Source: Actinomycetota bacterium (GTDB lineage: Bacteria > Actinomycetota > Thermoleophilia > Gaiellales > Gaiellaceae). From it: a DNA stretch of 44,264 nt. A model generated the notes under the pieces. The model saw only the letters and a program-made list of their open reading frames with translations. It did no database searches and was not told where the DNA came from. Numbering within the stretch: position 1 is the stretch's first letter; each line of letters begins with the position of its first letter. The DNA lies in assembly GCA_003152275.1 (NCBI GenBank), contig PLZU01000077.1, forward strand, positions 1 through 44,264, written 5' to 3'. Shown here piece after piece: positions 22,627 through 41,220 of the stretch. The position numbers and the translations under genes were made by a program.

Positions 22627-22700
22627 GGGGGCGTAGTTCAGCTGGTTAGAACGCCGGCCTGTCACGCCGGAGGTCGCGGGTTCGAGTCCCGTCGCTCCCG
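22627..22700 (+). tRNA. tRNA-Asp (anticodon GTC)
   Basis: A 74-nt cloverleaf: acceptor GGGGGCG/CGCTCCC (one G-U pair) with discriminator G, D-arm GTTCAGCTGGTTAGAAC, anticodon stem-loop CCGGCCTGTCACGCCGG with GTC, and T-arm GCGGGTTCGAGTCCCGT. CCA is not encoded. Its 3' half is the integration site of the neighbouring island; the gene is restored intact after insertion. Confidence 0.97.
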
Positions 22701-23827
22701 CTTTCAAAGTCCCCGCTCTCGGGGACTTTTTCTTTCGGCGTGTTCTTCGCCTCGTTTTTCCGATGGGGTGTGGATGGGGCCGTAAGCTCGTCGAGGGCAT
22801 CCAAAACGCCGCGGTTTGCGTCCGGGAAGAGGTGTCCGTAGAGGTCGAGCGTGACGCGTATCGACGAGTGCCCCATCTGCGCCTGCAGGTACTTCGGGTG
22901 CGCACCGACGGCGACCATTAGCGCCGCGTACGTGTGGCGGAGATCGTGGAAGCGGAAGCCGGTCAACGTCGTGCGGCGAACAGCTGGACGGAAGACGCGG
23001 TGACGGAAATTGTCGTCGTTCAGGATCTCGCCCTGCGGCGAAGGGAACACGAGGCCGAGCTCGTTCGGCTTGCGCGCGAGCAGCTGCCGGCGCAGCACGC
23101 GCACGGCGTGCGCAGAGAGGTCGACGCGCCGGCGCGAAGCGCGCGTCTTCACCGGCACGAGCTCGCCGGCATAGGTGCCGTTCTCGACGCGCGCTGTCTT
23201 GGCCTCGAGGTCGACGTTGCGATCGCGGAGCGCGAACAGCTCGCCCTGACGTAGGCCGGTGAGTGCGGCGAGCATGACCATGTTCCCGTAGGGCGCAGAA
23301 GTGTTCGCGGCGAGCTCCTCGACCTCGTGCCACTCGAGGAAGCGCATCTCGCGTTGGTCACGGCGCGGCGCCTTGACGCGGAAGACGGCCTCGTCGACGA
23401 GGTGGCCGCGCTCCTTCGCGTTTGCGAGCACCTGCTTGAGCACGCGCAGGGTCAGCTCAGCTTGGCGTGGCGCGCGCTTCGCAAGCACGGCGATGTGGTC
23501 TTCGACGGCGGCGGACCGGATCTCATCGAGCGGCATCGCACGGAACACCTCGAGGTGTTGTGTGAGGTCTCGCACGCGCTTGAGCGTGGACGCGCGAACC
23601 CGGAGCGCGTAGCGGTCGAGCCAACCGGCAGCGAACTCGCCGAGCGTCTCGGGCGGCGCCTGGTATAGCGCGCCGAGCGACGCCCGCCTTCGCTGCTCGA
23701 GCACGAATCGATCGGCGTCCTTCTTGAGCACGAACGAGCGCGAGCGCTCGCGGCCGTCGAAGCCGATCCAGCGGGCGCGGTAGCGCTTGCTCCCGTCTCC
23801 CACCCGGTACGACTCGACGTGCGCCAT
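22646..23827 (-). CDS. int: Tyrosine site-specific recombinase (integrase)
   Basis: 393 residues from ATG, two bases after the stop of the HTH gene. The N-terminal part has an AP2-like/arm-binding region (YRARWIGFDGRERSRSF) and a SAM-like core-binding domain. The catalytic domain holds Arg (TGLRQGELFALRD), His-x2-Arg (HDLRHTYAALM), His (MGHSSIRVTLD) and the nucleophile Tyr (LYGHLFPD). The last 18 codons run into the antisense of tRNA-Asp, the usual arrangement for an integrase that targets a tRNA 3' end. It catalyses integration and excision at the 48-bp att core. Confidence 0.96.
   Translation of the reverse strand: MAHVESYRVGDGSKRYRARWIGFDGRERSRSFVLKKDADRFVLEQRRRASLGALYQAPPETLGEFAAGWLDRYALRVRASTLKRVRDLTQHLEVFRAMPLDEIRSAAVEDHIAVLAKRAPRQAELTLRVLKQVLANAKERGHLVDEAVFRVKAPRRDQREMRFLEWHEVEELAANTSAPYGNMVMLAALTGLRQGELFALRDRNVDLEAKTARVENGTYAGELVPVKTRASRRRVDLSAHAVRVLRRQLLARKPNELGLVFPSPQGEILNDDNFRHRVFRPAVRRTTLTGFRFHDLRHTYAALMVAVGAHPKYLQAQMGHSSIRVTLDLYGHLFPDANRGVLDALDELTAPSTPHRKNEAKNTPKEKVPESGDFESGSDGTRTRDLRRDRPAF
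22657..22704 (+). repeat. attL: 48-bp direct repeat within tRNA-Asp
   Basis: It begins GCCTGTCACGCC and ends CTCCCGCTTT, covering the anticodon loop through the tRNA 3' end plus CTTT. It is identical to 41173-41220. The match breaks on both sides (G/C before, C/T after), marking the core. Confidence 0.95.
22706..22735 (+). terminator. Intrinsic terminator behind tRNA-Asp
   Basis: AAAGTCCCCG (22706-22715), CTCT, CGGGGACTTT (22720-22729), then TTCTTT. The 10-bp stem lies on the island side of attL, so the element supplies the tRNA terminator; it also sits inside the 3' coding end of the integrase. Confidence 0.8.
22761..22782 (+). repeat. Left candidate integrase arm-type site
   Basis: CGATGGGGTGTGGATGGGGC plus CG holds two GATGGGG copies 11 bases apart. 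A near-identical 22-mer (20 of 22 bases) lies at 41034-41055 just inside attR in the same orientation. Confidence 0.5.
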
Positions 23828-24099: not shown

Positions 24100-24120
24100 C
24101 GCTGCTCCTCCTTGGATCGA

Positions 24121-24194
24121 GAATCGAGGATAGCAAATATGGGTCATAGGGCAATAACAGGTCTCGTACCCTGTATGGGTTGTACACTTCGGAT
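24121..24194. promoter_or_regulatory. Divergent promoter region, xis/int versus XRE gene
   Basis: AT-rich for this window. Minus strand: TTGCCC, 16 bases, TATCCT (24132-24127) upstream of the excisionase-like gene. Plus strand: TACACT (24183-24188) seven bases before GTG 24195, a leaderless layout. TATGGGT occurs twice (around 24139 and 24174), possibly regulator sites. Confidence 0.45.
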
Positions 24195-24500: not shown

Positions 24501-24510
24501 GGGGAGAATC

Positions 24511-25035: not shown

Positions 25036-25140
25036 CCGCGACATGAACGCTCACGTACAGCAACTACTGACCCCGATAGCAAGCGAGACGCAGATGCATC
25101 CAGATGCAAAAGCGGATCAGCGTTTGTGTACGCCGTACTG

Positions 25141-25614: not shown

Positions 25615-25697
25615 CCCGAGCCTTCCCGGCCCGCGACACAGAACTGGTGCGCTTTCGTTGCACTTGACCGAAGCCCGCGCCTGCACGATTTCTCCCG

Positions 25698-28985: not shown

Positions 28986-28987
28986 TC

Positions 28988-29854: not shown

Positions 29855-30449
29855 CGCGGTCGACCCCCTGAAGCGCGCGCTCGATTCTCAGCGCGGCGTT
29901 TGCGCCGAACTCGTCCGCCCGGTCAAGCAGCGCCCGGCGAGTAGTCATGCCGCGCGCGAGGGCCTCCGCGATCGCCTGCTCAAGCTGATCGAGGTCAAGC
30001 TCCTCTGCTGCGACGTCGAGCAGCGACCGGAGAGGCGTTGTCACGCGGAAGCCTTCGTGTTCTTGAACGTCACGCGGCGCCAGGTCAGCTCGGTGAATCA
30101 CGACGCCGGGGTTCTTCTGGCGGAAGTTCGGCGGCGCAGTCAGATGGACACGGGCGGGGTCAACATCTCCGAGTTCGTGCACGGACAGCGCCGTCTCGTG
30201 AGAAACGACGGCTCGGCCGCGACTCCAGAGCGACCATCGCACAAGATCATCGCGATCGCCGGTCGGCCATTCGGGGAACCTGAAGATCCCGCGGTCAACG
30301 CGGAGCCAGTTACCGCGTTTGGCGTGGTAACGCTGGGCTGGATAGGAGTAGCCCACGTCGAGCGCTTGTGCCGCCGTGAAGTAGCCGGACTGTCTCGCGG
30401 CAATGGCGAGCAGGCGGCGGCGGAGGTCGGTACGGTCTTGAACAGGCAT
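29844..30449 (-). CDS. abiEi: AbiEi-type antitoxin and repressor
   Basis: 201 residues from ATG. N-terminal winged HTH (LLAIAARQSGYFTAAQALDVGYSYPAQRYHAKRGNWLRVDRGIF), then the AbiEi C-terminal domain (RAVVSHETALSVHELGD, VHLTAPPNFRQ, EGFRVTTPLRSLLDVA). In type IV toxin-antitoxins the AbiEi protein represses its own promoter and counters AbiEii. An inverted repeat lies in the promoter just upstream. Confidence 0.94.
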   Translation of the reverse strand: MPVQDRTDLRRRLLAIAARQSGYFTAAQALDVGYSYPAQRYHAKRGNWLRVDRGIFRFPEWPTGDRDDLVRWSLWSRGRAVVSHETALSVHELGDVDPARVHLTAPPNFRQKNPGVVIHRADLAPRDVQEHEGFRVTTPLRSLLDVAAEELDLDQLEQAIAEALARGMTTRRALLDRADEFGANAALRIERALQGVDRDGV

Positions 30450-30450
30450 G

Positions 30451-30498
30451 ATCCTTTATCGAAATTATAGTTTAACGCTCGGATGACCGCGTCAAACT
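30451..30498 (-). promoter_or_regulatory. abiE promoter with inverted-repeat operator
   Basis: On the minus strand, consensus TATAAT (30469-30464) and the ribosome site AAAGGA lie before ATG 30449. The inverted repeat AGTTTAACGC (30469-30478), ten bases, GCGTCAAACT (30489-30498), one mismatch, abuts the -10 box and is a good AbiEi-binding candidate. TTGACG is available upstream but with a long 20-base spacer. Confidence 0.7.
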
Positions 30499-30515
30499 TA
30501 AGATTCCGTACAGGA

Positions 30516-32891
30516 TCACGTCGAATAGAGGAGCTCCTCGAGCTTCTCCACGGCCTGTCGCAGCCTGTCGGCGCCGCCGAATCGCTGGGCGATCTCGACC
30601 GGTGTCCCGAACTCGTTCAGCGGAGGCACCTGGAGAATGCGAAGGTCGTCGAGCTGGCCGATGCCGTGCTCGGCGTACTTCTCCAACAGCTCCTCGAGAA
30701 TCGCCCGCGCCTCAGGGACGAATCCCTCAAGAAACGCGGCATCTTCACGACGGAGCCGGTTCGCCCGGTCCCTGCGACTGACAGCCGGCCCATTCCAGGC
30801 GACGAACACGAGTAGATCTACTGGGTCAGCCTCGCCGTGCCCGAGACGCTCCGCGAGTTCCTCGAATGAGATGCCTCGCACGGCGAACAGCTCCTCGACC
30901 TGCCGGCGCCCCTCCCGGTCGCGCCAGCGTTCGCGCAGGTCGCCAGGGTTCGCAAAAAGGCGCCGAACGTGCCCAGACACATAGTCGGCGTAATCGACGA
31001 GCTTGAGCTTCCCGGTCTCGAAGTCAGGTAGGTAGAAGCCCTCGGCCGTGATCCACACGTCCGATTCGTCGACGTAGAGCTTGCGTCCACCGCGGTCCAC
31101 GAGCTCGTCCTCATCGACTTCCGCGTCGGTGTCGACGTACTCGGGCTCGGGCTCGTGAACCTCGGTCGGCTCGACCACCTCGCCTTGGTCGTCGATCTCC
31201 TCGTCGACGATCTGCTCCGGCGGCCCGTCGAAGTCTGGATCTTCGAAGAGCGCCGTCGCGCCGGAGTAGTCGATGATCTCGAAGCTGAGCTTGTCCGCGT
31301 CTGGGTACAGGCGGGTGCCTCGCCCGATGATCTGCTTGAAGTCCACCATCGACCCGACTGGCTTGAAGAGGACGATGTTCTTCACCGTGGGAAGATCGAC
31401 TCCGGTCGAGAGAAGCTTCGACGTGGTGGCGATGACCGGTGTGTCCGACTCGACGTCAGCGAAGTTGCCGAGGTGTTCCTTCCCAATGTCGCCTTCGGCG
31501 GAGACGATGCGGGCCACGTAGTGCGGGTACTGCCGAGTGAGGTCGGCGTTCGCTCGGTGGAGAGCCGCCCGCATTTGATCGGCGTGCTCGGAGTCGACGC
31601 AGAAGACGATCGTCTTCGCCATGCGATCCGTTCGCTTCAGGTATTCGGTGAGATGCTTCGCCGCTACCTCCGTGCGAGAGAGCAACGAGACGACACGCTC
31701 GAAGTGCCCGGTCTCGTAGAGGTCCGGTGGGATTTCGCGACCGAAGAGGTCGAGTTGACCCTGGTCCGGCTGCCATCCGTAGGCGTCGGGACTGAGCACG
31801 ACGCGTCGCACTCGGTAGGGCGCCAGGAACCCGTCGTCGGTTCCCTGCTTAAGCGAGTACTCGTACACCGGCGCGCCAAAGTACGCGTAGGTGTCTCGGT
31901 TGTCTTCCCGAAGGGGCGTCGCGGTCATGCCGAGCTGCGTTGCGTCTGAGAAGTGTTCGAGGATCGCGCGCCAGCTCGAGTCGTCGCGCGCACTGCCGCG
32001 ATGGCACTCGTCGACCACGATCAGGTCGAAGTAGTCCGCCGGGTAGTCGCGGAAGATCCCGAGGCTGTCGCCGGTGTCCGCCAGCGCCTGATAGAGCGCG
32101 AAGTACACCTCGCGACCGGTCTTGATGTCGCCTTGGATCTTCCAGATCGCGTCACCGAACACCGGCCGGAACTCCCTGCTGATTGGCTGATCCACAAGGA
32201 TGTTGCGGTCGACGAGGTAGAGGATCCGGGGCTTCCGGCTCGCTGCCGGCCATTGTCCGGCCGTCAGCTTCCAAATGAGCTGAAGCGCGACGAATGTCTT
32301 GCCCGTCCCAGTAGCGAGCGTGAGCAGGACGCGCTTGCGGCCCGCAAGAGTCGCCTCGAGCGCGCGCTCGATCGCGACGCGCTGGTAGTAGCGAGGCTCC
32401 TTGACGCCGCCGTCCGCATTCCGGAGCTGTCGCGTGAAGGGCCGCAGCACGAGGTCGGCACTGCCATCGTCGCGGATGCCTTTCCAGGCTCGGAAGCGGG
32501 CCCAAGCCTCGGACGGCGCTGGAAACGCCGTGAGGTCGGTCTGTGCGCCGGTGTCGAAATCGTGCTCGACGATTCCCTTGCCGTTCGTCGCATAGGCGAG
32601 CGGGAGGTCGAGCAGCTCCGCGTAACGCATGCCCTGCTGAAGACCGTCAGACGGAAGTCGGTATTCGCGTTTCGCCTCGACGACGGCAACCGGGAAGCCG
32701 GGGGCGACCTCGAGCAGGTAGTCCGCTCGAAGCGGATCGCCGCGCCGGTGCTTGCCGCGCACCACGACGATGCGTCCGTCCGTAATCGGGTACTGCTCGA
32801 TGATCTGATCCGCGGACCAGCCCGCATCGTGAAGCCGGGGCACCACGTAGTCACGGCAGGTTTCTGCTTCGAGTGGGCCAAGAGCCATCAT
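30516..32891 (-). CDS. hsdR: Type I restriction endonuclease/helicase subunit
   Basis: 791 residues from ATG 32891; a TTG at 32921 would add ten residues and is less likely. N-terminal PD-(D/E)xK nuclease: RADYLLEVAPG...AVVEAKRE near 55-75. SF2 translocase: LATGTGKTFVALQL (Walker A), VVDECHRGS (DECH), GMTATP, TSKLLSTGVDL and QIIGRGTRLYP. An acidic linker near 580-625 (EEIDDQGEVVEPTEVHEPE) precedes the C-terminal EcoEI_R_C-type region. It cuts unmodified DNA after translocation and first requires HsdM and HsdS. It is separated from hsdM by the abiE pair. Confidence 0.95.
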   Translation of the reverse strand: MMALGPLEAETCRDYVVPRLHDAGWSADQIIEQYPITDGRIVVVRGKHRRGDPLRADYLLEVAPGFPVAVVEAKREYRLPSDGLQQGMRYAELLDLPLAYATNGKGIVEHDFDTGAQTDLTAFPAPSEAWARFRAWKGIRDDGSADLVLRPFTRQLRNADGGVKEPRYYQRVAIERALEATLAGRKRVLLTLATGTGKTFVALQLIWKLTAGQWPAASRKPRILYLVDRNILVDQPISREFRPVFGDAIWKIQGDIKTGREVYFALYQALADTGDSLGIFRDYPADYFDLIVVDECHRGSARDDSSWRAILEHFSDATQLGMTATPLREDNRDTYAYFGAPVYEYSLKQGTDDGFLAPYRVRRVVLSPDAYGWQPDQGQLDLFGREIPPDLYETGHFERVVSLLSRTEVAAKHLTEYLKRTDRMAKTIVFCVDSEHADQMRAALHRANADLTRQYPHYVARIVSAEGDIGKEHLGNFADVESDTPVIATTSKLLSTGVDLPTVKNIVLFKPVGSMVDFKQIIGRGTRLYPDADKLSFEIIDYSGATALFEDPDFDGPPEQIVDEEIDDQGEVVEPTEVHEPEPEYVDTDAEVDEDELVDRGGRKLYVDESDVWITAEGFYLPDFETGKLKLVDYADYVSGHVRRLFANPGDLRERWRDREGRRQVEELFAVRGISFEELAERLGHGEADPVDLLVFVAWNGPAVSRRDRANRLRREDAAFLEGFVPEARAILEELLEKYAEHGIGQLDDLRILQVPPLNEFGTPVEIAQRFGGADRLRQAVEKLEELLYST

Positions 32892-32962
32892 GCGCGCTGA
32901 TCGTAGTTCCGTCGACCGCAAACAACAGGGGACGCCGCGAGAGACGCGGTAGTCTCGGCGCC

Positions 32963-33847
32963 ATGGCCGAGATCACGCGGCAACGGATGGGCGAACTCGT
33001 GCGCGGCGTATTCGCCGCGCTCTTGGATCAACCCGAAGGCCTTCCCGCAGCCGAGGTCTTGAAAACCGTCGAGACCAAGGTCTCGCCGACCCCGTTTGAA
33101 CAGACCTACTACCCGAAGTCGCCGAACGTCCGTCGATTCGAGAAGATCATCCGGTTCGGGACGATCCCCGCCGTCAAGGCAGGCTGGCTCCTCAAGAGCA
33201 AGGGCCAGTGGTCGCTGACCGACGAGGGTCGGACCGCTTACTCCAGCTTCACCGATCCAGAATCATTCCAGCGCGAGGCGATCAAGCTCTACGGAGCTTG
33301 GAAGGAGGGGCAGCCGACACCGGAGCCGAACGAAGACGCGCTCGAGACTGAAACAGCGAGCACGTTCGAGGAAGCGGAGGAGGCAGCGTGGGGCGAGATC
33401 CGCGACTACCTCGCGAGGATGCCCCCTTACGACTTCCAGAACCTCGTCGCGGCGCTCCTGAAAGCCATGGGTTACCACGTCCTCTGGGTGGCACCGCCTG
33501 GGCCAGACCGTGGAATCGACATGATCGCGCACACCGACCCGCTGGGCACGACAAGCCCGCGGATCAAGGTGCAAGTGAAGCGACAACCTGGCACGAAGAT
33601 GTCCGTCGACGCGATTCGCTCGTTCATGGCCGTACTCGGTGACCAGGACGTCGGCATCTTCATCTCGGCTGGTGGATTCACCTCCGACGCCGAGCGCGAA
33701 GCGCGCTCGCAGGAGAAGCGGCGCCTGACCCTGATCGACCTGAACCGACTCGTCGAACTCTGGACCGAGCACTTCGTGCAGCTTGACGAAGTCGATCGGC
33801 AGCGACTTCCGCTGAAGCCGATCTATTTCCTCGCACCGCGCGAGTAA
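32963..33847 (+). CDS. mrr: Mrr-type restriction endonuclease
   Basis: 294 residues from ATG 32963, the first plausible start; the open frame upstream overlaps hsdR. The N-terminal winged-helix Mrr_N domain (MGELVRGVFAALL, TPFEQTYYPKSPNVRRFEKIIRFG) is followed by the Mrr catalytic fold: DFQNLVAALLKAMGYHV, GPDRGIDMIAH with the metal Asp, and IKVQVKRQPG (Q-x-K). Mrr enzymes cut methylated DNA, so this could be a type IV restriction activity that tolerates its own HsdM mark. It diverges from hsdR, 71 bases apart. Confidence 0.92.
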   Translation: MAEITRQRMGELVRGVFAALLDQPEGLPAAEVLKTVETKVSPTPFEQTYYPKSPNVRRFEKIIRFGTIPAVKAGWLLKSKGQWSLTDEGRTAYSSFTDPESFQREAIKLYGAWKEGQPTPEPNEDALETETASTFEEAEEAAWGEIRDYLARMPPYDFQNLVAALLKAMGYHVLWVAPPGPDRGIDMIAHTDPLGTTSPRIKVQVKRQPGTKMSVDAIRSFMAVLGDQDVGIFISAGGFTSDAEREARSQEKRRLTLIDLNRLVELWTEHFVQLDEVDRQRLPLKPIYFLAPRE

Positions 33848-33892
33848 CTCCACCGCCGTCCGTCGATCACTACCTCAGGTCGTACGGGCCTC

Positions 33893-35053
33893 TCACTGTG
33901 CTGCCTCGACAAGCTCGGCGATCGCATCGATGAGCAGTCCAAGATCAGGCGTCGCTCCTACTTCGATCGTTTGCGTCGAGCCCGTGTGGCTCGACAAGTT
34001 CGCCACGATGCCTCGCTCGTCAGAGTGCAATGCGACCCCGATCGTGGTCGTGGTACCCGGGCCGACATCGCCCAACCCAACGTTACGAAGTCGTGCTCTC
34101 AACTGTGCAACGGTTGGGTCGACAGTGGCATCGTGTGCAGCTTCGATCGAAACGGCCACCGCACCGAGATACGCAGGGTCGACGTAACGGCCGTCTCCGG
34201 TTGCCAGCATCTTGTCGACCTTGCTGCGAGCTGAGCTATCGAGCAGAGGTGACGCTTCCAAGATCGCAACGGCCGCGGCCGCCGCCGCATCGATGCTGGC
34301 GACGCGGAAGTCGTCCCCGCGCGCAAGGCCGGCTGCCAGAGCACCGGCGAAGACATCGCCAGATCCGATCGTTGTAGACGCGGCGACGCGAAAGGCGGGG
34401 ATAGCCGTACGCTCCCGACCGCTCAGGAGTGTTGTGCCCCATCGGCCGTTCTTCAGGAGCGCGTAGTCGAATCCCGGAAGCGGATGGTTCTCGATGAGCT
34501 CCCGAGGCGTGGCTCCCCCAACCTCCTGTGCTGCCTCACCTACGTTTGCCACGTAGATCCTCGAGGGGGCGGCGACTCCGCAGGCGGCGACCGCATCCTT
34601 GGTCCGTGAGAGTGACCCCTGCCTATCCCAGATGAGCGTGCTCTGCCGGTCGACCCAGCGCGCGATTAGGCCGGATGCAAACGGATCGAGGTCGGGCATT
34701 CCGAAGGCGAGCACGATCCGCGCCTGCGGTGGATCATGTGTGAGCACCGGCTGCGCATGGGCGTCCTCGAACTGAACGCTCGGTGTCTGTACCTCGCCCT
34801 CGTCCTCAATCACGAACGCAGCGCTGGAACCGGGCATGATCTCAATGGCAGCCGGTTCAACGCCGGCTTTGCGCAGAATCGCCCCTAGCTCGTCGGCGTC
34901 ATCAGCACCGACTGCCGCTGCGAGAGCGGTTGATGCGCCGAGGCTGGCCGCAGCGACAGCGGCGTAGAGACCACTACCGCCGAGTCGGCTGCGAGGGTAG
35001 GGGCCTAGAAGTCGCTCGCGGTAAATGCCGCCGACGACTAGAACGTCGATCAC
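33893..35053 (-). CDS. PfkB-family carbohydrate/nucleoside kinase coupled to the OGG-like gene
   Basis: 386 residues from GTG 35053, which overlaps the stop of the upstream gene (ATGTGA). Ribokinase fold: IDVLVVGGIYRERLL and RLGGSGLYAAVAAASLGA (G-G-x-G) at the N-terminus, and TTIGSGDVFAGALAAG with the anion-hole G-S-G-D and catalytic Asp233. The last 110 residues form an extra domain (KMLATGDGRYVDPAYLGAVAV ... TTTIGVALHSDERGIVANLSS) that I do not recognise. It probably phosphorylates a nucleoside or sugar. Coupling to a DNA glycosylase suggests it salvages or marks a released base or nucleoside; this is inference. Confidence 0.85.
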   Translation of the reverse strand: MIDVLVVGGIYRERLLGPYPRSRLGGSGLYAAVAAASLGASTALAAAVGADDADELGAILRKAGVEPAAIEIMPGSSAAFVIEDEGEVQTPSVQFEDAHAQPVLTHDPPQARIVLAFGMPDLDPFASGLIARWVDRQSTLIWDRQGSLSRTKDAVAACGVAAPSRIYVANVGEAAQEVGGATPRELIENHPLPGFDYALLKNGRWGTTLLSGRERTAIPAFRVAASTTIGSGDVFAGALAAGLARGDDFRVASIDAAAAAAVAILEASPLLDSSARSKVDKMLATGDGRYVDPAYLGAVAVSIEAAHDATVDPTVAQLRARLRNVGLGDVGPGTTTTIGVALHSDERGIVANLSSHTGSTQTIEVGATPDLGLLIDAIAELVEAAQ

Positions 35054-35745
35054 ATTGCCAACGAGCCGCGCTGCCACTCCCAGAGGAAGAGATCGAACGC
35101 AGCAGGCGACGCATCGAGTTCCTTGCACCATGAGAGAAACGCTTCCTCGACACGCGCATAATCGCGCGGGAGGCTCACATCGACGAGTCGACGCTCCTCG
35201 ACCAACGCGCGGAGAACGTGGACGTCGATGATTGCGAGACCACGGCCAAGACCGAGGTTCCTGAGCAGCCAACTGGCTGTCTTCTGACCGAAGCCAGGGC
35301 AGCCGCAGAGAAACTCGCGTCGAACACGCTCGTCATCGGTCGCGCGCAGGCGGTCGAGCACGGACGCCTCTCCGAGAAGCCACGCGCGCGCGGAGACAAT
35401 TAGAGTCGCCTTGCGTTGCGGATAGCGGTATCGCCGCAACTCGCCGTTGCGTCGGCGAGGTTCGAACCGAGGCGAAGACAGCTCGTGCCGAAGTCGTTCT
35501 TCGAGCGCCTGCGGCTTCCACCCGGACGAGAACAAGTCGAGTGCAAGCAGCTGACGCGTCGCCGAAAGTGCAAGTTCGTACGGGACACCATGCCCGCCTA
35601 GTAGGCAGAACAACGCCTCGTCCCGCAAGAGATCCTCGGTGACGTTCAGCTCGAGGTCGAAAAGCCCGTCGTAGCGTGGTTGGAGCTCCTGCCAGCGCTC
35701 CCGCCACCCTGCCATTGCGGTCTCGGCTTGCACCGTCTGCGCCAT
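35050..35745 (-). CDS. cap11: OGG-type HhH-GPD DNA glycosylase/lyase (Cap11-like)
   Basis: 231 residues from ATG 35745 with AGGAG nine bases upstream; the longer open frame before it reads as Arg/Pro-rich noise over the exonuclease gene. The helix-hairpin-helix GPD motif CPGFGQKTASWLLRNLGLG carries Lys155 and is followed by AIIDVHVLRAL with Asp174, the lyase Lys and catalytic Asp of 8-oxoguanine glycosylases. In type IV CBASS an OGG-like protein is one of the ancillary genes. Here it lies on the same strand as the CD-NTase but is separated from it by the exonuclease gene. Confidence 0.88.
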   Translation of the reverse strand: MAQTVQAETAMAGWRERWQELQPRYDGLFDLELNVTEDLLRDEALFCLLGGHGVPYELALSATRQLLALDLFSSGWKPQALEERLRHELSSPRFEPRRRNGELRRYRYPQRKATLIVSARAWLLGEASVLDRLRATDDERVRREFLCGCPGFGQKTASWLLRNLGLGRGLAIIDVHVLRALVEERRLVDVSLPRDYARVEEAFLSWCKELDASPAAFDLFLWEWQRGSLAM

Positions 35746-35849
35746 GTCCCTCAGCTCCTGACGAACATCGGCATCAGGTCCATGCGTCTGGTTTGTATCA
35801 CCCGGTCCGGCTGACGGGAACCATGGCGCAGGCCACGTAGAGTCGGGGG

Positions 35850-36437
35850 GTGCCACCAGTGCCGGACCTCTACTTCTCGGTCGATATCGAGGCCGACGGT
35901 CCGATTCCTGGCCCATTCTCGATGCTCTCGTTCGGTCTCGTGGTTGCGGGCCGGTTCGACGGCCTGCGGTTCGAGTCCCGACTCGATCGGCCACACACCC
36001 TCTACAGGGAACTGAAGCCGATCTCCAGCTCGTTCGTCCCAGAAGCGCTCGAGATCTCGGGTCTTGACCGCGACCAGCTCGAACGGGAAGCGGCCGACCC
36101 GCGCACTGCGATGACGGAGGCGCGCGAGTGGGTGCTTGAACAAGCGGAAGACGACCGGCCGGTTCTGACCGGATTCCCGTTGATGTTCGACTGGCTCTTC
36201 ATCTACTGGTACTTCGAACGCTTCGCCGAGGGTGGATCCCCGTTCGATCACTCGGCCGGACTCGACATGAAGACGATGTATCAGCAAAAGGCCGCTGTCA
36301 CCACGTCTAACGCGGGTCTCCGCGATCTGCCCGACGCACTGCAACCGATCCAGCCGCATACGCATAACGCACTCGACGATGCGCTCCGGCAAGCCGAGAT
36401 TTTCGTCCGCCTGTTCGGATGGGAACGCCGAAACTAG
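35850..36437 (+). CDS. DEDDh-type 3'-5' exonuclease
   Basis: 195 residues from GTG, preceded by a G-run. Exo I motif FSVDIEADGP with Asp12 and Glu14, a mid motif PVLTGFPLMFDWLF with a conserved Asp, and Exo III HNALDDALRQ with His172 and Asp177. This is the DEDDh layout of DnaQ/ExoX/TREX-like enzymes acting on DNA or RNA ends, or on short oligonucleotides. It is the only plus-strand gene within the CBASS cluster, and its end overlaps the CD-NTase end by 4 nt. A role in degrading signal oligonucleotides or phage DNA is possible but unproven. Confidence 0.88.
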   Translation: MPPVPDLYFSVDIEADGPIPGPFSMLSFGLVVAGRFDGLRFESRLDRPHTLYRELKPISSSFVPEALEISGLDRDQLEREAADPRTAMTEAREWVLEQAEDDRPVLTGFPLMFDWLFIYWYFERFAEGGSPFDHSAGLDMKTMYQQKAAVTTSNAGLRDLPDALQPIQPHTHNALDDALRQAEIFVRLFGWERRN

Positions 36438-37354
36438 TCGAGAAGACCGTTCCAATCATCAAGGTTGCTGCTCTGCTGCATGCGCTCGGCGATTGCATTG
36501 AATGCAGCGGACACGCGTGTACGTGCAGCGGAGCCGCCGGCTCCGAGGTAGGCGTCGACTCGTTCTGACTGCCCGGTCACATCTGGGATCGGCCTCAGAA
36601 CATCGTTGGCGGCGGACCCAAAGAGATGCGTGAGCATCGATTTCGGATCGCGGGGGCCTCGATAGTTCGCGAACGCGGCAACGCTGAGAGCCTCGAGGTG
36701 GTATCCGGTTGGTCTCTCGGGTTCTGCAAGCTCATGGGCGATTATCGCCTTGGCCAACTTGATCGCCGGTATCGCTGCTCCCGCCTGCGCCTTGTTTAGC
36801 TCGGTGAGCCGCCGTGCGAAGTTGCCAGGCCGAATTTGAACCCACTCGCTCCCGTCTGGCGACGAGATCGCCCGATGCTCACCCTGCTGGATCGCAGGTA
36901 GAAGCTGGACCTCAAGGCCGTCGCCGTATCGCACCGTGACCGCGAGTTGCCCCACCGTGACTTCAGCGGTGTCCCGAAGACGCTCGCGAAGAGCGTCTGC
37001 GAACTGCTCTCTCGCCTCGGTCGGAGAAAGGTCGGCCACCTTTTTCAGCATGACCAGGACGTCGACGTCGCTGAGGCCGTCAACAAAGGTGTGCTTCGCG
37101 ATCGAGCCACCAAATAGCATTCGGTCGATCTCATCGACCTCGTCTCCGAGCGCCTCCTCAAGCTCATCGAGACGCCGCCGTACGAGTTCGACGTCCCGGT
37201 TGTTGAGGTTCCGGAGCTCTTCGTCGAGGCGTGCGTTCACCTCGCTATCGAACTGCGCCCGAGCGACCTGCTCTGCGGCGCGCTCTCGGAGGCGTTCGAG
37301 TCCCTGCTCGCCGCCCGACGAGCCCGCGCCACCACCACCGCCGCCACCACCCAC
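36434..37354 (-). CDS. CD-NTase (cGAS/DncV-like nucleotidyltransferase) with poly-Gly N-terminus
   Basis: 306 residues. GTG start with GAGGAGG seven bases before it. The protein opens Met-(Gly)8-Ala-Gly-Ser-Ser-Gly-Gly, then a long charged helix (about 19-78). The NTase core follows: LFGGSIAKHTFVDGLSDVDVLV with Gly82-Gly83-Ser84 and metal Asp96 and Asp98, and a third acidic residue Glu148 in LEVQLLP. The C-terminal helical domain (IPAIKLAKAIIAHE, HLEALSVAAF, HLFGSA) matches the OAS/CD-NTase fold. It should make a cyclic or linear oligonucleotide alarm on phage infection. The N-terminal Gly, exposed after Met removal, is the expected site of deazaguanine conjugation. Confidence 0.9.
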   Translation of the reverse strand: MGGGGGGGGAGSSGGEQGLERLRERAAEQVARAQFDSEVNARLDEELRNLNNRDVELVRRRLDELEEALGDEVDEIDRMLFGGSIAKHTFVDGLSDVDVLVMLKKVADLSPTEAREQFADALRERLRDTAEVTVGQLAVTVRYGDGLEVQLLPAIQQGEHRAISSPDGSEWVQIRPGNFARRLTELNKAQAGAAIPAIKLAKAIIAHELAEPERPTGYHLEALSVAAFANYRGPRDPKSMLTHLFGSAANDVLRPIPDVTGQSERVDAYLGAGGSAARTRVSAAFNAIAERMQQSSNLDDWNGLLD

Positions 37355-37357
37355 TTG

Positions 37358-38407
37358 CTACCTCCTCATCACGTGAATCATCGCGTCGTAGGTTTGTTCG
37401 AGAATCTCGCGGCGGGAGAAATGTGCCCACTCCCCACCCTCCTCGATGTACACGTTCACATCGTCCGTGAGCTGTGCGAGCGCCTCGAGATTCGTTTGTC
37501 GGACAATCGCCCGTCCTGTCCCGAGCGGCTCCTCCATGAGAGCCGCATCTCGAAGGATCGCCACATCCTGGTAGGAAGCGATCCCATCGTCAAACGCATA
37601 CCGCCACCACGCCAGGCCGTCGATGATCTCCGCGCCGGCGGCAACGTAGAGCGGTGTCCATAAGGGATCGAGCCCACCGAAGACGTGGATTGGCCGTTTC
37701 ACGCCGGCGTCGTCCAAGAGCTCCCTGAGCTGCGCCAGGATCACGAGTCGACCGAGCGGCGTTGGGTCGAGCTCCTTCTCTGTGACCCCGATGACCCCGA
37801 ACGCATCGAGCGCAGCCGCACACGGAGCGAGCGCCTCGAGATCGTGGAAGGTCGGCGAACGCCACGTCGGATCGTTCGGATCGATGCGCGGCGGGGGCTT
37901 GAGCAAGATGTCACTCAGTACACCAGGCCGCCGCCCGAAGAAGCGCTGAGCCGCCTCGATTTGTAACTCGTATGTGTCATGTTTGTCGAAGCTGACGAGA
38001 GCGACGTCCCCGGGCGACCGCAGGCTCTCAAGCGTCGACTCGAACATCCACTCGTCCCACGGTAGAGCTCGCTTGTCCTGCAGATACGGCGGATCGCCTT
38101 CGAACGGCAACGTCTCGTAGCTGCCGCTGTCGACGAGCAGGAGGTCAACCGGCAATGACCTGGCACCGTCTCTGAAGCGCTCTCGCGGGATGAAGCCGTA
38201 GTGCAAGTCGTACGACGACACGAGAAGTCCTACGGGACGCCGCAATGCTGGCAAGGTCGCCTCGAACACGTCGATCTGGTCGAACGATCCGGGCCTCGCG
38301 TCTGGGCCACTCCGCCCGGCGCCCTTGCTGGAAATGGATGGGACGATGAGTGGAGTCTCGAGCGATCCTCCACTCGGGAGGGGCACGACACTCTTACGCG
38401 CGAGCAT
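37358..38407 (-). CDS. cap10: TGT-like protein of type IV CBASS (Cap10-like)
   Basis: 349 residues from ATG 38407, which overlaps the QueC-like stop by 14 nt; a GTG at 38446 is an alternative start. It has the TGT-type barrel hallmarks: LLLVDSGSYETL (93-98, in place of DSGGFQ), PIHVFGGLDPLWTPLYVAAGAEIIDGLAW. The zinc-binding Cys-x-Cys-x2-Cys...His cluster of true tRNA-guanine transglycosylases is missing, so it is unlikely to modify tRNA. Cap10 proteins are reported to be remodelled TGTs that bind the modified CD-NTase. The CD-NTase gene starts three bases after its stop. Confidence 0.87.
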   Translation of the reverse strand: MLARKSVVPLPSGGSLETPLIVPSISSKGAGRSGPDARPGSFDQIDVFEATLPALRRPVGLLVSSYDLHYGFIPRERFRDGARSLPVDLLLVDSGSYETLPFEGDPPYLQDKRALPWDEWMFESTLESLRSPGDVALVSFDKHDTYELQIEAAQRFFGRRPGVLSDILLKPPPRIDPNDPTWRSPTFHDLEALAPCAAALDAFGVIGVTEKELDPTPLGRLVILAQLRELLDDAGVKRPIHVFGGLDPLWTPLYVAAGAEIIDGLAWWRYAFDDGIASYQDVAILRDAALMEEPLGTGRAIVRQTNLEALAQLTDDVNVYIEEGGEWAHFSRREILEQTYDAMIHVMRR

Positions 38408-38981
38408 TAAGCATTGCTCTATCGCGGCACGAAGCGCACGCTCCACAAGGTGTGGAGCCGGCCTCGCAGCTGTATGTCAACTCGAATGGCACATTCAGGC
38501 TCTCGGCCAGCGCGTAGACGTCTGCTTTCTGGGCCTCGAGGAAAGGGGCTGCCAGGCGAACCTGTCCCCCGGTGTGGAAGTCAAGCGATGACTGGATGAG
38601 CTCGATGAACTCGGGGCTGCAGTCGCGATACCCAGTTCCGGCGTGCACTCCGAGGTAAACGACGCAGCTCGGCACTTGAAGAGTAAGGAGAGCGAGGTGC
38701 ACAAAGAAGGCGTTACGGCCTCGGATCTCTCCCTGCCCGAATCTCAACCCGCCGAGTTGGACCTCACGCCATGCCAGGTCATATCGTTCGGCAACCGCGC
38801 ACGACGAGGCGCGCTCGGCGGCGTAGGCGGCCTGTCCGTAGCCGACAAACAGAGCAGTCGCGAGTAAACCCTGCTCCTTCGCCAGCGCCGCTAAAGCGGC
38901 CGAGTCCACACCGCCGCTCAGCAGAATCACTCCCTCGACGTCGAGAAGCGCCGGGTCGAAAAGCTGATCGTTTCTGTTCAC
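38394..38981 (-). CDS. cap9: QueC-like ligase of type IV CBASS (Cap9-like)
   Basis: 195 residues from GTG 38981, which overlaps the SLATT stop (ATGTGA). PP-loop ATPase motif ILLSGGVDSAALAALA with SGGVDS at 22-27; zinc Cys172, 179, 182 and 185 in SCEAGSTPCGACASC. It is shorter than biosynthetic QueC (about 220-230 residues), and no queD, queE or queF lie nearby. QueC turns carboxy-deazaguanine into preQ0; Cap9 is reported to use the same chemistry to join amido-deazaguanine to the N-terminal Gly of the partner CD-NTase. The substrate must come from host queuosine genes outside the window. Confidence 0.9.
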   Translation of the reverse strand: MNRNDQLFDPALLDVEGVILLSGGVDSAALAALAKEQGLLATALFVGYGQAAYAAERASSCAVAERYDLAWREVQLGGLRFGQGEIRGRNAFFVHLALLTLQVPSCVVYLGVHAGTGYRDCSPEFIELIQSSLDFHTGGQVRLAAPFLEAQKADVYALAESLNVPFELTYSCEAGSTPCGACASCRDRAMLNARA

Positions 38982-39481
38982 ATTCGACCGGGGCCGCCGA
39001 GACCGGAGATTTCCGAACTCGTAGGAAGCAGGCCCGCCCATTCGTCGTGGAGGTCTGCCTGATGCTGAGCGACGAACTCTGCGAACCGCTCATCTCGGTC
39101 TTCACCCTTATACGGCCCGACCCGATGCTCGTGCCGGATCCGTTCCGCCTCGAGACGTCGCTGGTAACCCCGGTAGAGACTCCAACGCTCGTGCGGACGT
39201 TCGATTCGGACCCAGCCGCCGAGCACTGCAGCCACCGCCGCCAAGACCGCCACCAGAACTTTCCCAACCCAAAAGGGGCTCGTGTGGTCAGCGACGATTA
39301 CGGCGACCGGAATCGCCGACGTCGTCAGCAACAGACCTCCTGTCGCGACACGAGAGCGGCGCTTGTTCTTGTCGGCCTTCCGGCGGGCGTACCGGATCAT
39401 CGCGTCGCAGTGCTGACGAGCCGTCCCGGACGCGATCGCCTGTTCGAGATTCTCTTCGTCTCTTCCCCACAACCGCCCCAT
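38978..39481 (-). CDS. Two-TM SLATT/DUF4231 protein (candidate membrane effector)
   Basis: 167 residues from ATG 39481; the frame is open upstream but there overlaps the previous gene in a non-coding style. Cytoplasmic N-terminal helix (QHCDAMIRYARRKADKNKRR), TM1 about 46-65, TM2 about 72-92, then a helix with ERWSLYRGYQRRLEAERIRHE and a C-terminal FVAQHQADLHDEWAGLL. This is the DUF4231 form of the SLATT domain, proposed to form pores that trigger cell death when coupled to nucleotide signals. Coupling to the QueC-like gene by a 4-nt overlap ties it to the CBASS operon. Confidence 0.85.
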   Translation of the reverse strand: MGRLWGRDEENLEQAIASGTARQHCDAMIRYARRKADKNKRRSRVATGGLLLTTSAIPVAVIVADHTSPFWVGKVLVAVLAAVAAVLGGWVRIERPHERWSLYRGYQRRLEAERIRHEHRVGPYKGEDRDERFAEFVAQHQADLHDEWAGLLPTSSEISGLGGPGRM

Positions 39482-39534
39482 CTGTTGCCAACGGTAGACC
39501 GTTCTGTGGCCGATGCACAGGATCCGGGCAGATC

Positions 39535-40689
39535 TCAGATGAGCGGCGGTACCACCACGAGCGGTGGGCGCGAGGAGTGCAGTTGAACATGGGCCGCGAG
39601 CCTCGTGCGCAGCTCTCCCGGGTCGTCCTTCGAGTCCCAGAAGAACCACGGGATCTTGTCTAGATCGAACGGCGGCTTTGTGCCATTGCGCGCTGTGATG
39701 ATCACCCGCTGCGCCCGGCCCAGCGCATAGCCGAGCTCGGCCAGACAATTCGGTCGAAGCTCGGTCAGATCGACCACAACCAGCGAGCTGAAGAACAGGC
39801 GAGCGAAGATCTCGTCGTTCATCCACGCGCGCTCAGGCTCATCCCGACCCATCTCGAACCTCGCAAAGCCCAACGCGGCCACGACCGGATCGACGGCCTC
39901 GCGGAAGAACCTTTCTACCTCGACGAAGACCGGAACCGAAGAGTCAAGCAGGCGGACGTAGAAGCACAGCGGTGGCTCGAGCTCGCGAACGAGCTGGAGG
40001 ACGCGCTCCGCGAGTACATCGGCCGTTCTTCCCTCGTTGCGCGTTGACAGTCCAGCGAGGCGACCCGCGCCCGGCACATCGTTCGGAAGCCTTAGGAAGT
40101 TGCTCGGGTTTCTGAGCGCCCGCGCGGCGAGCCCGGCTCCGCCCACAACGTCGTCGCCTCGGCTCGCCCCGATGTCGAAGTCGAGCGGGACAATTGACCT
40201 ACCGCTCTGCGCGTAGAGGTTCGCGAGGTGCTCCACTCCCGCGCCTCCTCCTAGCGTCAGCAGAACGTCACCGGCGTTCGCCTGCTCAATCCGGATCAGA
40301 GCTCCCGAGCGCCATCCCTCAGGCAACACGCTAAGGTCGAGCGCGCTGGCCGCGAGAAGCGCATCGAGCACAGCCCGCCGATGGTCCGGCACCTGATCCA
40401 GACCTCGCTGGCTCGCGCCAGCTATGAGAAGTGGGCCGCGGGCAGTCTGTGCCGCAGCAGCGCCACTCTCTACGGCTGCGAGCGCTGCTTCGAGCGCGGT
40501 CCAGTCGAAGACCAGCGCCGGCGCCCCGGCGCCATGGACAGGCTCGGCACCGATGCCAACGACGAACGAACCCCCTTCGGACGCGTGTCTCCGAACGACA
40601 TCAGCGACGACCGCGTGCGCAAGGTTGAGGAGAGCAACATCGCAGTCGCCACTTGCGCTCCCAGCGATGTGAAGGCGTGGAAGAAAGAT
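39535..40689 (-). CDS. SLOG plus nucleoside-deoxyribosyltransferase/TIR-like protein, non-canonical start
   Basis: The first ATG/GTG/TTG in frame is GTG 40392 (285 aa), but protein-like sequence continues about 99 codons upstream to near 40689 (ATC): IFLPRLHIAGSASGDCD, HAVVADVVRRHASEGGSF, VVGIGAEPVHG, ALVFDWTALEAALAAVE, GPLLIAGASQRGLDQ. An in-frame stop lies at about 40810. Full length would be about 384 aa. Next comes a SLOG-like Rossmann unit GDVLLTLGGGAGVEHLA ... RSIVPLDFDIGAS. The C-terminal domain (AWMNDEIFARLFFSSLVVVD, LTELRPNCLAELGYALG, PPFDLDKIPWFFW) resembles NDT/TIR-like enzymes. SLOG could sense the CD-NTase product, and the C-terminal domain could cleave NAD or nucleotides. Confidence 0.75.
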   Translation of the reverse strand: MFLPRLHIAGSASGDCDVALLNLAHAVVADVVRRHASEGGSFVVGIGAEPVHGAGAPALVFDWTALEAALAAVESGAAAAQTARGPLLIAGASQRGLDQVPDHRRAVLDALLAASALDLSVLPEGWRSGALIRIEQANAGDVLLTLGGGAGVEHLANLYAQSGRSIVPLDFDIGASRGDDVVGGAGLAARALRNPSNFLRLPNDVPGAGRLAGLSTRNEGRTADVLAERVLQLVRELEPPLCFYVRLLDSSVPVFVEVERFFREAVDPVVAALGFARFEMGRDEPERAWMNDEIFARLFFSSLVVVDLTELRPNCLAELGYALGRAQRVIITARNGTKPPFDLDKIPWFFWDSKDDPGELRTRLAAHVQLHSSRPPLVVVPPLI

Positions 40690-40715
40690 CGCTGAGACTT
40701 CTTGCCCTGGTCGAT

Positions 40716-40922
40716 CTAAGCGGCCACGCCGAGCGCGAGCCTCGGCGTGAAGTTCGGGTAGGTGAGGCGGGTGTAATCCAGGGCCAACCGTTCCGCCTCG
40801 GATACTTGTTTACCCTCGCGGATGTACCAGTTCAACATCATCTTGAACGTAGCCTGGTCCATGTCGCCTCGCGTCTTGTCGTACCGCGCGCAAGCCGCCT
40901 TGCTAACTGCCTTCCAGGACAT
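40716..40922 (-). CDS. Small hypothetical protein (68 aa)
   Basis: ATG 40922 to TAG 40716. The sequence is amphipathic and protein-like (ATFKMMLNWYIREGKQVSEA, ERLALDYTRLTYPNF), with a basic N-terminus (SWKAVSKAACARYDKTRGD). I recognise no family. It lies immediately upstream of the SLOG/NDT gene on the same strand and could share its transcript. The N-terminus may extend to an upstream start (40967), adding 15 residues. Confidence 0.6.
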   Translation of the reverse strand: MSWKAVSKAACARYDKTRGDMDQATFKMMLNWYIREGKQVSEAERLALDYTRLTYPNFTPRLALGVAA

Positions 40923-41033
40923 GCGACAAGCGTACCAAGGGGTCCTGGCATCGGCCCCGGCGCGCACCGAGAACCCAAGAGCGTTGGGCGGCAGCTCTGA
41001 ACAACACGCCGGTTGTCACTGGAGGCGACAACG

Positions 41034-41055
41034 CGATGGGGTCTGGATGGGGCGG
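41034..41055 (+). repeat. Right candidate integrase arm-type site
   Basis: CGATGGGGTCTGGATGGGGC plus GG, differing from the left copy at 22761-22782 in 2 of 22 bases, in the same orientation, 118 bases inside attR. The stretch 40923-41172 otherwise holds no gene I can support. Confidence 0.5.
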
Positions 41056-41172
41056 GACTCTCCGAAGACCCCATGGAAGGGCGTGCAACCCCTACACGCC
41101 GGAACGGACGAAACGCCTGCTAATCGGGCTCTTCCGGGCTTTCCGATGGAGGATCGTGTTTACCCTTGCGTC

Positions 41173-41220
41173 GCCTGTCACGCCGGAGGTCGCGGGTTCG
41201 AGTCCCGTCGCTCCCGCTTT
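41173..41220 (+). repeat. attR: 48-bp direct repeat, remnant tRNA-Asp 3' end
   Basis: Identical to 22657-22704. The 5' half of the tRNA is absent here (preceded by unrelated TACCCTTGCGTC), so this is not a functional tRNA but the far attachment site of the island. Confidence 0.95.

What the first reader, a model, noticed from the sequence alone, without database searches (positions are those of the whole stretch)
33893..40689. Type IV CBASS cluster with extra PfkB kinase, exonuclease and SLOG/NDT-like gene
Seen: on the minus strand a SLOG/NDT-like gene, a SLATT protein, a QueC-like protein, a TGT-like protein without zinc Cys and a CD-NTase form one tightly packed set with 4-14-nt overlaps, followed after a plus-strand exonuclease by an OGG-like glycosylase coupled to a PfkB kinase. 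Known, as I recall: QueC-, TGT- and OGG-like proteins (Cap9, Cap10, Cap11) define type IV CBASS. Inference: this is a complete type IV CBASS in a high-GC actinobacterium, with accessory genes I do not know as standard parts.
Basis: partly seen in the sequence, partly recalled or inferred. Interest (0 to 1): 0.93.

Follow-up and report, generated by a model that had tools for sequence, protein, structure and literature searches.

The report
Type IV CBASS with unusual accessory genes
An actinobacterium carries, on a mobile island, an anti-phage alarm system of a known rare kind (type IV CBASS), but its usual glycosylase-like part is replaced by one that still looks catalytically active and is paired with a sugar- or nucleoside-type kinase, while the host genome as assembled shows no genes for making the modified base on which such alarms depend.

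Summary
The core is a type IV CBASS: CdnD, Cap10 and Cap9 match the solved CdnD, Cap10 and Cap9 (E 8e-65, 1e-29, 1e-39) far better than CCA enzymes, TGT or QueC, and CdnD begins MGGGG, like the N-terminus that Cap9 modifies. The exonuclease (Cap18-like) and the SLOG/NDT gene belong to known CBASS families. The "OGG" is not canonical Cap11: it is an Ogg2-type protein that keeps the catalytic Lys, which 0 of 46 scoreable canonical Cap11 rows keep. It replaces Cap11 in a small clade (4 of 52 loci with enough flank; none has both). In two of the four (window and a Dehalococcoidia locus) a related PfkB kinase follows it directly; in the other two it follows QueE-QueD, which make CDG, the Cap9 substrate. 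Five loci of this clade carry QueD-QueE in or beside the operon. The window's system does not, and its host assembly (86% complete) shows no QueD, QueE or true QueC. The system sits on an 18.5-kb island at a tRNA-Asp gene. New variant of a known kind; the role of the glycosylase-kinase pair is inferred, not shown.

The parts
22627..22701 (+). tRNA-Asp (GTC), integration target of the island
   Evidence: ARAGORN
22657..22704 (+). att-like repeat copy 1 (3' end of the tRNA-Asp gene)
   Evidence: 48-nt exact direct repeat, spacing 18,516
41173..41220 (+). att-like repeat copy 2, far end of the island
   Evidence: 48-nt exact direct repeat
22646..23827 (-). tyrosine integrase
   Evidence: Pfam Phage_integrase 3.9e-22
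33893..35053 (-). PfkB-family kinase, GTG start overlapping the OGG stop by 4 nt; ribokinase-like with a GSGD motif and 98 more residues than its L008 relative
   Evidence: Pfam PfkB 65.6 bits vs cut-off 25.8; 40% identical to the PfkB after the OGG in L008; Foldseek ribokinase 7.7e-14 on a model of pLDDT 61.7
35050..35745 (-). Ogg2-type 8-oxoguanine glycosylase-like protein with catalytic Lys and Asp, in place of canonical Cap11
   Evidence: Pfam Ogg-HhH 62.5 bits vs cut-off 27; PDB 3fhf 5.2e-16; NCBIfam PRK01229 82.6 bits, below its cut-off 183; invariant K155 and D174; ATG 35745
35850..36437 (+). Cap18-like 3'-5' exonuclease, convergent with CdnD
   Evidence: PADLOC PDLC00753 1.6e-40; PDB 7t2s 1e-27
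36434..37354 (-). CdnD, CD-NTase with N-terminus MGGGGGGGGAGS
   Evidence: PDB 9ntn_G CdnD 7.6e-65; PADLOC cyclase PDLC00790 2.6e-97; GGS-x11-DVD motif
37358..38407 (-). Cap10, TGT-like protein without the zinc cysteines
   Evidence: PDB 9ntn_A Cap10 1.3e-29; PADLOC PDLC00913 3.9e-62; one Cys
38394..38981 (-). Cap9, QueC-like N-terminal deazaguanylation enzyme; keeps ATP, CDG and zinc motifs
   Evidence: PDB 9nto_B Cap9 1.2e-39; PADLOC PDLC00911 1.9e-56; motifs SGGVDS, HAGTGYRDCSPEF, four Cys
38978..39481 (-). SLATT two-transmembrane protein (DUF4231/SLATT_1), not the usual type IV 2TM family
   Evidence: Pfam DUF4231 8.5e-14, SLATT_1 4.9e-6; no PADLOC match at E<=0.01; no homologue at 1e-3 in the fetched loci
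39535..40689 (-). SLOG-NDT effector (Cap17-like N-terminal SLOG plus DNPH1/TIR-like C-terminal domain); start codon uncertain (ATC 40689 assumed)
   Evidence: PADLOC PDLC00733 4.6e-76 over 9-387 of 388; Pfam Cap17-like_N 8.8e-43; model pLDDT 83.5, Foldseek ThsA 3e-4 and DNPH1 9.7e-4

Best explanation
A type IV CBASS of the deazaguanylation kind, carried as cargo of a tRNA-Asp-integrated defence island. Inferred working, by homology: Cap9 joins 7-carboxy-7-deazaguanine (CDG) to the N-terminal glycine of CdnD; Cap10 binds the modified N-terminus; phage infection makes CdnD produce a cyclic oligonucleotide; the SLOG domain of the SLOG-NDT protein senses it and its DNPH1/TIR-like domain destroys a nucleotide (NAD+ or dNMP), with the SLATT protein as a second, membrane-acting effector; the Cap18-like exonuclease is an accessory. 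In this small clade canonical Cap11 has been replaced by an Ogg2-type glycosylase that keeps its catalytic residues. Most likely it excises a (modified) guanine-type base and the translationally coupled PfkB kinase phosphorylates a sugar or nucleoside product, or together they handle the deazaguanine base on which the system depends. Shown here: gene identities, motifs, replacement of Cap11, recurrence of the OGG-PfkB pair in a second locus. Not shown: any activity, and the role of the pair.
For: Core; Cap9 keeps the ATP, CDG-recognising Tyr/Asp and zinc motifs given for Cap9 in PMC13279940 and PMC13329287 (passages). N-terminus: Gly2 in 63 of 70 rows, the start being chosen in favour of Gly; the two loci with neither Cap9 nor Cap10 (L063, L066) are among the seven without. 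Cap11 replacement: of 52 loci with enough flank 37 have canonical Cap11, 4 the Ogg2 type, 0 both, 11 neither (Fisher p 0.005, loci treated as independent); 0 of 46 scoreable canonical rows have the Lys, 4 of 4 Ogg2-type rows have it, and it aligns with a Lys of 3fhf that reads Gln in 3knt. Pair: L008 has SLOG-NDT, Cap9, Cap10, CdnD, OGG and PfkB in one run on one strand. Specificity, in a phylum sample: 0 of 197 other genomes have the PfkB at 1e-15, 2 of 197 a weak Ogg2 match at 1e-10. Effector: 2TM in 38, full SLOG-NDT in 6, both in 0 of 52.
Against: OGG-PfkB lies 688 nt beyond CdnD, behind an opposite-strand exonuclease, and the island holds other defence genes, so the pair could be a neighbour. 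The pair is seen in two loci only. No CDG source was found: own genome 0 PTPS/QueD; QueE only a 27-bit partial radical-SAM match; QueC only Cap9 and two partial PP-loop matches of 22-25 bits in much longer frames; but the assembly is 86% complete. SLOG-NDT has no ATG/GTG/TTG start. The PfkB model is poor (pLDDT 61.7). NDT versus TIR chemistry is unresolved: PADLOC calls the family TIR, Foldseek favours DNPH1 weakly.
Confidence: 0.75

Rival explanations
1. An ordinary type IV CBASS whose true parts end at CdnD; the Ogg2 and PfkB genes are an independent two-gene defence or repair unit that merely sits next to it in the island.
For: Separate unit 688 nt away, with an opposite-strand gene between; island with other defence genes; Brig-type phage-base glycosylases give defence on their own, one of them cloned from next to a CBASS (PMC13160076, passages).
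Against: In L008 the same two genes follow CdnD directly in the same run; the Ogg2 type lies downstream of CdnD in all four loci of the clade that have it, each time without canonical Cap11; both genes are nearly absent from the phylum samples.
Confidence: 0.2
2. A decaying or silent copy: the effector lacks a usual start codon and the host cannot supply CDG, so the system no longer works.
For: No ATG/GTG/TTG at the homologous start of SLOG-NDT; no QueD, QueE or QueC found in the assembly.
Against: All eight frames are open and key motifs are kept; genome only 86% complete. Of the 11 of 49 type IV host assemblies without a PTPS match, eight loci (L008, L011, L019, L026, L030, L049, L052, L065) still have single, unbroken Cap9, Cap10 and CdnD frames; of the others L040 has split Cap9 and Cap10 frames, L054 is cut by the contig end and L066 has neither Cap9 nor Cap10.
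Confidence: 0.12
3. A queuosine or tRNA/DNA-modification gene cluster with a CCA-like nucleotidyltransferase.
For: QueC- and TGT-like family names.
Against: Best matches are CdnD, Cap10 and Cap9, not CCA enzymes, TGT or QueC; a true TGT is elsewhere in the genome; 50 of 52 relatives of this CdnD have Cap9 and Cap10 beside it.
Confidence: 0.01

Closest known systems
Type IV CBASS with protein deazaguanylation (CdnD-Cap9-Cap10; PDB 9ntn, 9nto; Wassarman et al. 2025, preprint abstract seen, PMC11996544)
   Same: CdnD, Cap9 and Cap10 together, glycine N-terminus of CdnD, Cap9 motifs
   Different: No canonical Cap11 and no usual 2TM effector; instead catalytic-Lys Ogg2 type, PfkB, SLOG-NDT and a different SLATT
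Commonest type IV set among the relatives found here (Cap9-Cap10-CdnD-2TM PDLC00681-OGG PDLC00910)
   Same: Core three genes in the same order
   Different: The two genes after CdnD are replaced
L008, uncultured Dehalococcoidia locus CATOSP010000002.1
   Same: SLOG-NDT, Cap9, Cap10, CdnD, Ogg2 type, PfkB
   Different: One run on one strand; no window-type SLATT or exonuclease found; PfkB lacks the C-terminal extension
Solirubrobacterales type IV loci L007 and L009
   Same: L009 has the nearest CdnD (50% identity); same Ogg2 type
   Different: Carry 2TM and QueE-QueD; no SLOG-NDT or PfkB
Ogg2-type N-glycosylase/DNA lyases (PDB 3fhf, 3knt; the family label Ogg2 is recalled)
   Same: HhH region with catalytic Lys and Asp
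   Different: Match covers only the C-terminal half (profile 108-231 of 235); below the NCBIfam cut-off
Cap18 of E. coli upec-117 CBASS (PMC9122588, passages)
   Same: CBASS-associated 3'-5' exonuclease family (PDLC00753)
   Different: Opposite strand here; in that paper a catalytic-dead Cap18 did not affect protection

Membership tests
Type IV CBASS (deazaguanylation core) | CD-NTase of the CdnD kind | tested here: met
   9ntn_G 7.6e-65; PDLC00790 2.6e-97
Type IV CBASS (deazaguanylation core) | QueC-like Cap9 with ATP, CDG and zinc motifs | tested here: met
   9nto_B 1.2e-39; motifs
Type IV CBASS (deazaguanylation core) | TGT-like Cap10 | tested here: met
   9ntn_A 1.3e-29; PDLC00913 3.9e-62
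Type IV CBASS (deazaguanylation core) | N-terminal glycine acceptor on CdnD | tested here: met
   GTG start at 37354 gives MGGGGGGGGAGS
Type IV CBASS (deazaguanylation core) | An OGG-like gene in the locus | tested here: met
   Pfam Ogg-HhH 62.5 bits vs cut-off 27
Type IV CBASS (deazaguanylation core) | Deazaguanylated CdnD and phage defence | not testable with these tools
   needs protein mass spectrometry and plaque assays
Commonest five-gene type IV set | Cap11 of family PDLC00910 | tested here: not met
   no PADLOC match at E<=1; Ogg2 type instead. 11 of 52 loci have neither kind
Commonest five-gene type IV set | 2TM effector of family PDLC00681 | tested here: not met
   window SLATT has no PADLOC match at E<=0.01 and no match to the 2TM profile
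Ogg2-type glycosylase | catalytic Lys and Asp in the HhH region | tested here: met
   K155, D174 invariant in four rows; Lys and Asp aligned with 3fhf
Ogg2-type glycosylase | NCBIfam equivalog PRK01229 above its cut-off | tested here: not met
   82.6 bits vs cut-off 183: related, not an equivalog by that model
Cap18-type exonuclease | match to the CBASS exonuclease model and a solved 3'-5' exonuclease | tested here: met
   PDLC00753 1.6e-40; 7t2s 1e-27
CBASS effector family PDLC00733 (SLOG plus NDT/TIR-like domain) | full-length match | tested here: met
   9-387 of 388, 4.6e-76; fold search
PfkB kinase | Pfam PF00294 above cut-off, GxGD motif | tested here: met
   65.6 vs 25.8 bits; GSGD in both rows

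The most novel reading that the evidence does not exclude
The Ogg2-PfkB pair links base excision to deazaguanylation: in a host without CDG synthesis, the system is armed only when an infecting phage brings 7-deazaguanine chemistry (phages with folE-queD-queE are known), either because phage-made CDG lets Cap9 modify CdnD or because Ogg2 excises deazaguanine bases from phage DNA and PfkB processes the product. That would make type IV CBASS in such hosts a sensor of phages that hide their DNA with deazaguanine.
Probability: 0.1. Interest if true: 0.9.

Novelty: new variant of a known kind. Interest (0 to 1): 0.62.

Why it matters
Type IV CBASS was only recently shown to modify its own cyclase with a nucleobase; what its OGG-like protein does and where the base comes from are, as far as I could see, open. 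This clade gives natural experiments on both: an OGG that keeps the catalytic Lys beside a kinase; operons that bring their own CDG-making genes (QueD-QueE in five loci, in four of the five hosts the only PTPS/QueD match in the genome); and, in the window and L008, intact cores in hosts with no QueD match.

Tried and rejected
Considered and rejected: a queuosine or CCA-type cluster; the window OGG as canonical Cap11. Profile comparison of the window OGG type with canonical Cap11 aligned the HhH region (E 0.0043) but gave only 8% probability, so homology of the two beyond a shared fold is not shown. That PfkB always stands in for QueD-QueE: not upheld, L011 of the same clade has neither. Viral contigs: no CdnD relative in two scans. 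Plasmids: one record, Pseudanabaena. More loci of the clade: a class sample gave 5 of 399 genomes (own; two whose coordinates fit L009 and L010; G794 = L079, a Cap9-Cap10-CdnD-2TM-Cap11 locus; one weak), a sample of the phylum of L008 gave 1 of 400, L008 itself. The PfkB substrate could not be narrowed: all NCBIfam matches are far below their cut-offs. The 27-bit radical-SAM match of the own genome to QueE was judged not QueE; such partial matches are found in most relatives too.

Against my reading, told plainly: 11 of 49 type IV host assemblies have no PTPS match, among them Devosia sp. YR412 (L065) with a canonical set, so lack of CDG genes is not special to the PfkB-bearing loci; 50 of the 66 loci were given to that search and one (L033) was not held. 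The exclusivity of 2TM and SLOG-NDT counts only full SLOG-NDT matches within 5 kb; L038 and L067 have 2TM and, farther off or in part, weaker Cap17-type matches. The scan needs short peptide patterns, so it undercounts. Fourteen of 66 non-redundant loci were dropped from the 52-locus tally for short flanks; L002, L003, L010 and L046 were left out as short or redundant. Fisher values ignore relatedness.

Full report
OBSERVATION. The eight genes described are present as open frames. After start correction by homology and overlaps they are, on the minus strand, SLOG-NDT (39535-40689), SLATT (38978-39481), Cap9 (38394-38981), Cap10 (37358-38407), CdnD (36434-37354), then a plus-strand exonuclease (35850-36437), then OGG (35050-35745) and PfkB (33893-35053). 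Junctions: +53, -4, -14, +3 nt within the first five, 688 nt to OGG, -4 nt OGG/PfkB.

SURROUNDINGS. The window is one whole contig (44,264 nt) of a 3.25-Mb, 105-contig assembly that is 86% complete. Two genomes called 'same class' (G660, G787) fit the coordinates of the Solirubrobacter loci L009 and L010, so the host is an actinobacterium of the class of Solirubrobacter. A 48-nt exact repeat of the tRNA-Asp 3' end (22657-22704 and 41173-41220) brackets an 18.5-kb element. GC is 0.607-0.658 in the 1-kb windows from 25 to 41 kb and 0.656-0.727 in the others. The element starts with a tyrosine integrase and an HTH_17 protein. The CBASS lies at its far end; HsdS, HsdM, HsdR, Mrr and an AbiEi-like protein lie between. 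It looks like a mobile defence island.

CORE. CdnD, Cap10 and Cap9 match the solved type IV proteins at 7.6e-65, 1.3e-29 and 1.2e-39; the best CCA-adding enzyme, TGT and QueC score 0.055, 0.34 and 3.7e-7. PADLOC models named TGT and QueC, and a cyclase model, match at 3.9e-62, 1.9e-56 and 2.6e-97. Cap9 keeps SGGVDS, HAGTGYRDCSPEF and four zinc-type Cys, motifs given for Cap9 in PMC13329287 (passages; its C-terminal motif has one more residue before the second Cys), and the Tyr/Asp that recognise the base in PMC13279940 (passages). CdnD starts MGGGGGGGGAGS; PMC13279940 states that Gly2 of the MGGS motif is modified by Cap9. In my set Gly2 is found in 63 of 70 rows, redundant rows included and the start chosen in its favour; the seven others are L019, L031, L032, L060, L071 and the two loci with neither Cap9 nor Cap10, L063 and L066. 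The own genome has a separate true TGT (1.3e-141).

RELATIVES. A pattern scan with a four-row CdnD alignment found 66 loci in the species-genome collection, none in two scans of viral contigs, and one plasmid was found by tblastn. Iterated profiles of the window genes and of the recurrent neighbours show the usual order Cap9-Cap10-CdnD-2TM-Cap11; representatives of the last two match PDLC00681 (7.9e-62) and PDLC00910 (8e-75). Of 66 non-redundant loci (window included), 52 have at least 2.5 kb before and 2 kb after CdnD. Of these 52, within 5 kb: 50 have Cap9 and Cap10, 37 canonical Cap11, 38 the 2TM, 6 a full SLOG-NDT, 4 the window's OGG type, 2 PfkB, 2 the exonuclease, 5 QueD with QueE.

THE OGG IS A REPLACEMENT. 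The window OGG has no PADLOC match at E<=1. It is an Ogg2-type relative (PDB 3fhf 5.2e-16; NCBIfam PRK01229 82.6 bits, below its cut-off of 183; the label Ogg2 is recalled). K155 and D174 are invariant in the four rows; K155 aligns with a Lys in 3fhf that reads Gln in 3knt (that 3knt is a designed catalytic mutant is recalled). In canonical Cap11 that position is V, I, A or T in 42 of 47 rows scored by pattern and A in four more read by eye; one row is a fragment. K-x-D-R-H is found in 45 of 47. No locus has both kinds (0 of 52; 37 and 4; Fisher p 0.005, ignoring relatedness). The CdnD tree puts window, L007, L008 and L009 in one supported 8-row clade with L011, L012, L014 and L023 (98/94); that the four Ogg2-type loci form a clade of their own is not shown.

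THE PAIR. In L008 (Dehalococcoidia) the Ogg2-type gene and PfkB follow CdnD in one run, and its PfkB is 40% identical to the window's, with the GSGD motif. Neither gene is general in the phylum samples: no PfkB match at 1e-15 in 197 other genomes; two weaker Ogg2-type matches (73-74 bits) in 197. In L007 and L009 the genes before it are QueE and QueD (PTPS 8.3e-34 and 1.6e-35; QueE above the cut-off of 240 bits in both). In L012, L014 and L023 QueD and QueE lie just before Cap9; the QueE of L012 and L014 score 106 and 107 bits, below the family cut-off of 206. By coordinates the QueD in the CBASS locus is the only PTPS match in the host genome for L007, L009, L014 and L023; L012's host has a second, partial one. 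CDG is the Cap9 substrate (PMC13279940) and FolE, QueD and QueE make it (PMC13329287, passages), so these loci carry most of their own supply. [quoted passage not shown] Searches for CBASS with QueE (26 papers, 10 listed), PfkB (2), 7-carboxy-7-deazaguanine (4, 3 listed) and 8-oxoguanine DNA glycosylase (1) showed nothing in titles or abstract starts that describes these arrangements; of the listed papers I saw passages of PMC13279940, PMC13329287, PMC11676413, PMC10952713 and PMC13160076. The Science 2025 paper on deazaguanylation was not held, so prior mention there is possible.

THE CDG PUZZLE. In the window's genome there is no PTPS, no TIGR04508 QueE, only a 27-bit partial TIGR03365 match, and for QueC only Cap9 and two partial PP-loop matches. 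In the 15 other genomes of the genus that were searched PTPS is found in 3 and TIGR04508 in 0. TGT is present, so queuosine precursors may be salvaged; CDG salvage is not known to me. Eleven of 49 host assemblies with such a locus have no PTPS match, so this is not unique to the window. Phages that carry folE, queD and queE are described in PMC6884629 (passages); phage-borne CDG is therefore a possible source, untested.

EFFECTORS. Full SLOG-NDT and 2TM do not co-occur within 5 kb (6, 38 and 0 of 52; p 1.5e-4), which suggests alternative effectors. The window adds a SLATT of another family. The exonuclease is Cap18-like; in the E. coli upec-117 system a catalytic-dead Cap18 did not affect protection (PMC9122588, passages).

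MECHANISM. Shown by sequence: identities, motifs, order, replacement. Inferred: deazaguanylation of CdnD, cyclic-oligonucleotide signalling, SLOG sensing and nucleotide hydrolysis. Speculative: that the Ogg2-type protein excises a guanine-type base and PfkB acts on the product. Phage-base glycosylases acting in defence have precedent (Brig1-3, Brig3 with an operon partner; PMC13160076, passages).

VERDICT. A real type IV CBASS, a new variant of a known kind: the accessory module, not the core, is new.

Noticed in passing
window 22646-41220: The CBASS is cargo of a tRNA-Asp-integrated island with integrase, HTH protein, a recombinase-like fragment (25126-25614), a type I restriction system, Mrr and an AbiEi-like protein.
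   Followed up: partly
window 39535-40809 (-): The SLOG-NDT frame has no ATG, GTG or TTG near the homologous start; the nearest table-11 start codons are ATC 40689 and 40668. Relatives L008 and L064 start with ATG there. Unexplained: weak start by design, unusual start, or decay.
   Followed up: partly
L007, L009, L012, L014, L023: QueD and QueE genes inside or next to type IV CBASS operons of actinobacteria; in four of the five hosts the only PTPS/QueD match in the genome.
   Followed up: yes
L063 and L066 (Chloroflexota): CdnD relatives followed by a SLOG-type half protein, without Cap9 and Cap10 and without the N-terminal glycine motif: a natural control for the deazaguanylation link.
   Followed up: partly
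window 40716-40922 (-): A 68-codon open frame just upstream of SLOG-NDT near the att-like repeat; no homologue sought.
   Followed up: no
L032 6365-8259: Another type IV locus (Chloroflexi) has SLOG-NDT pieces and a Cap18-like exonuclease before Cap9.
   Followed up: no
L040 4597-6151: Cap9 and Cap10 each fall in two frames (Devosia nanyangense MAG): a broken or misassembled type IV locus.
   Followed up: no
window 33893-34190 (-): The window PfkB has 98 more residues than the L008 PfkB, at its C-terminus; no Pfam family matched there.
   Followed up: no
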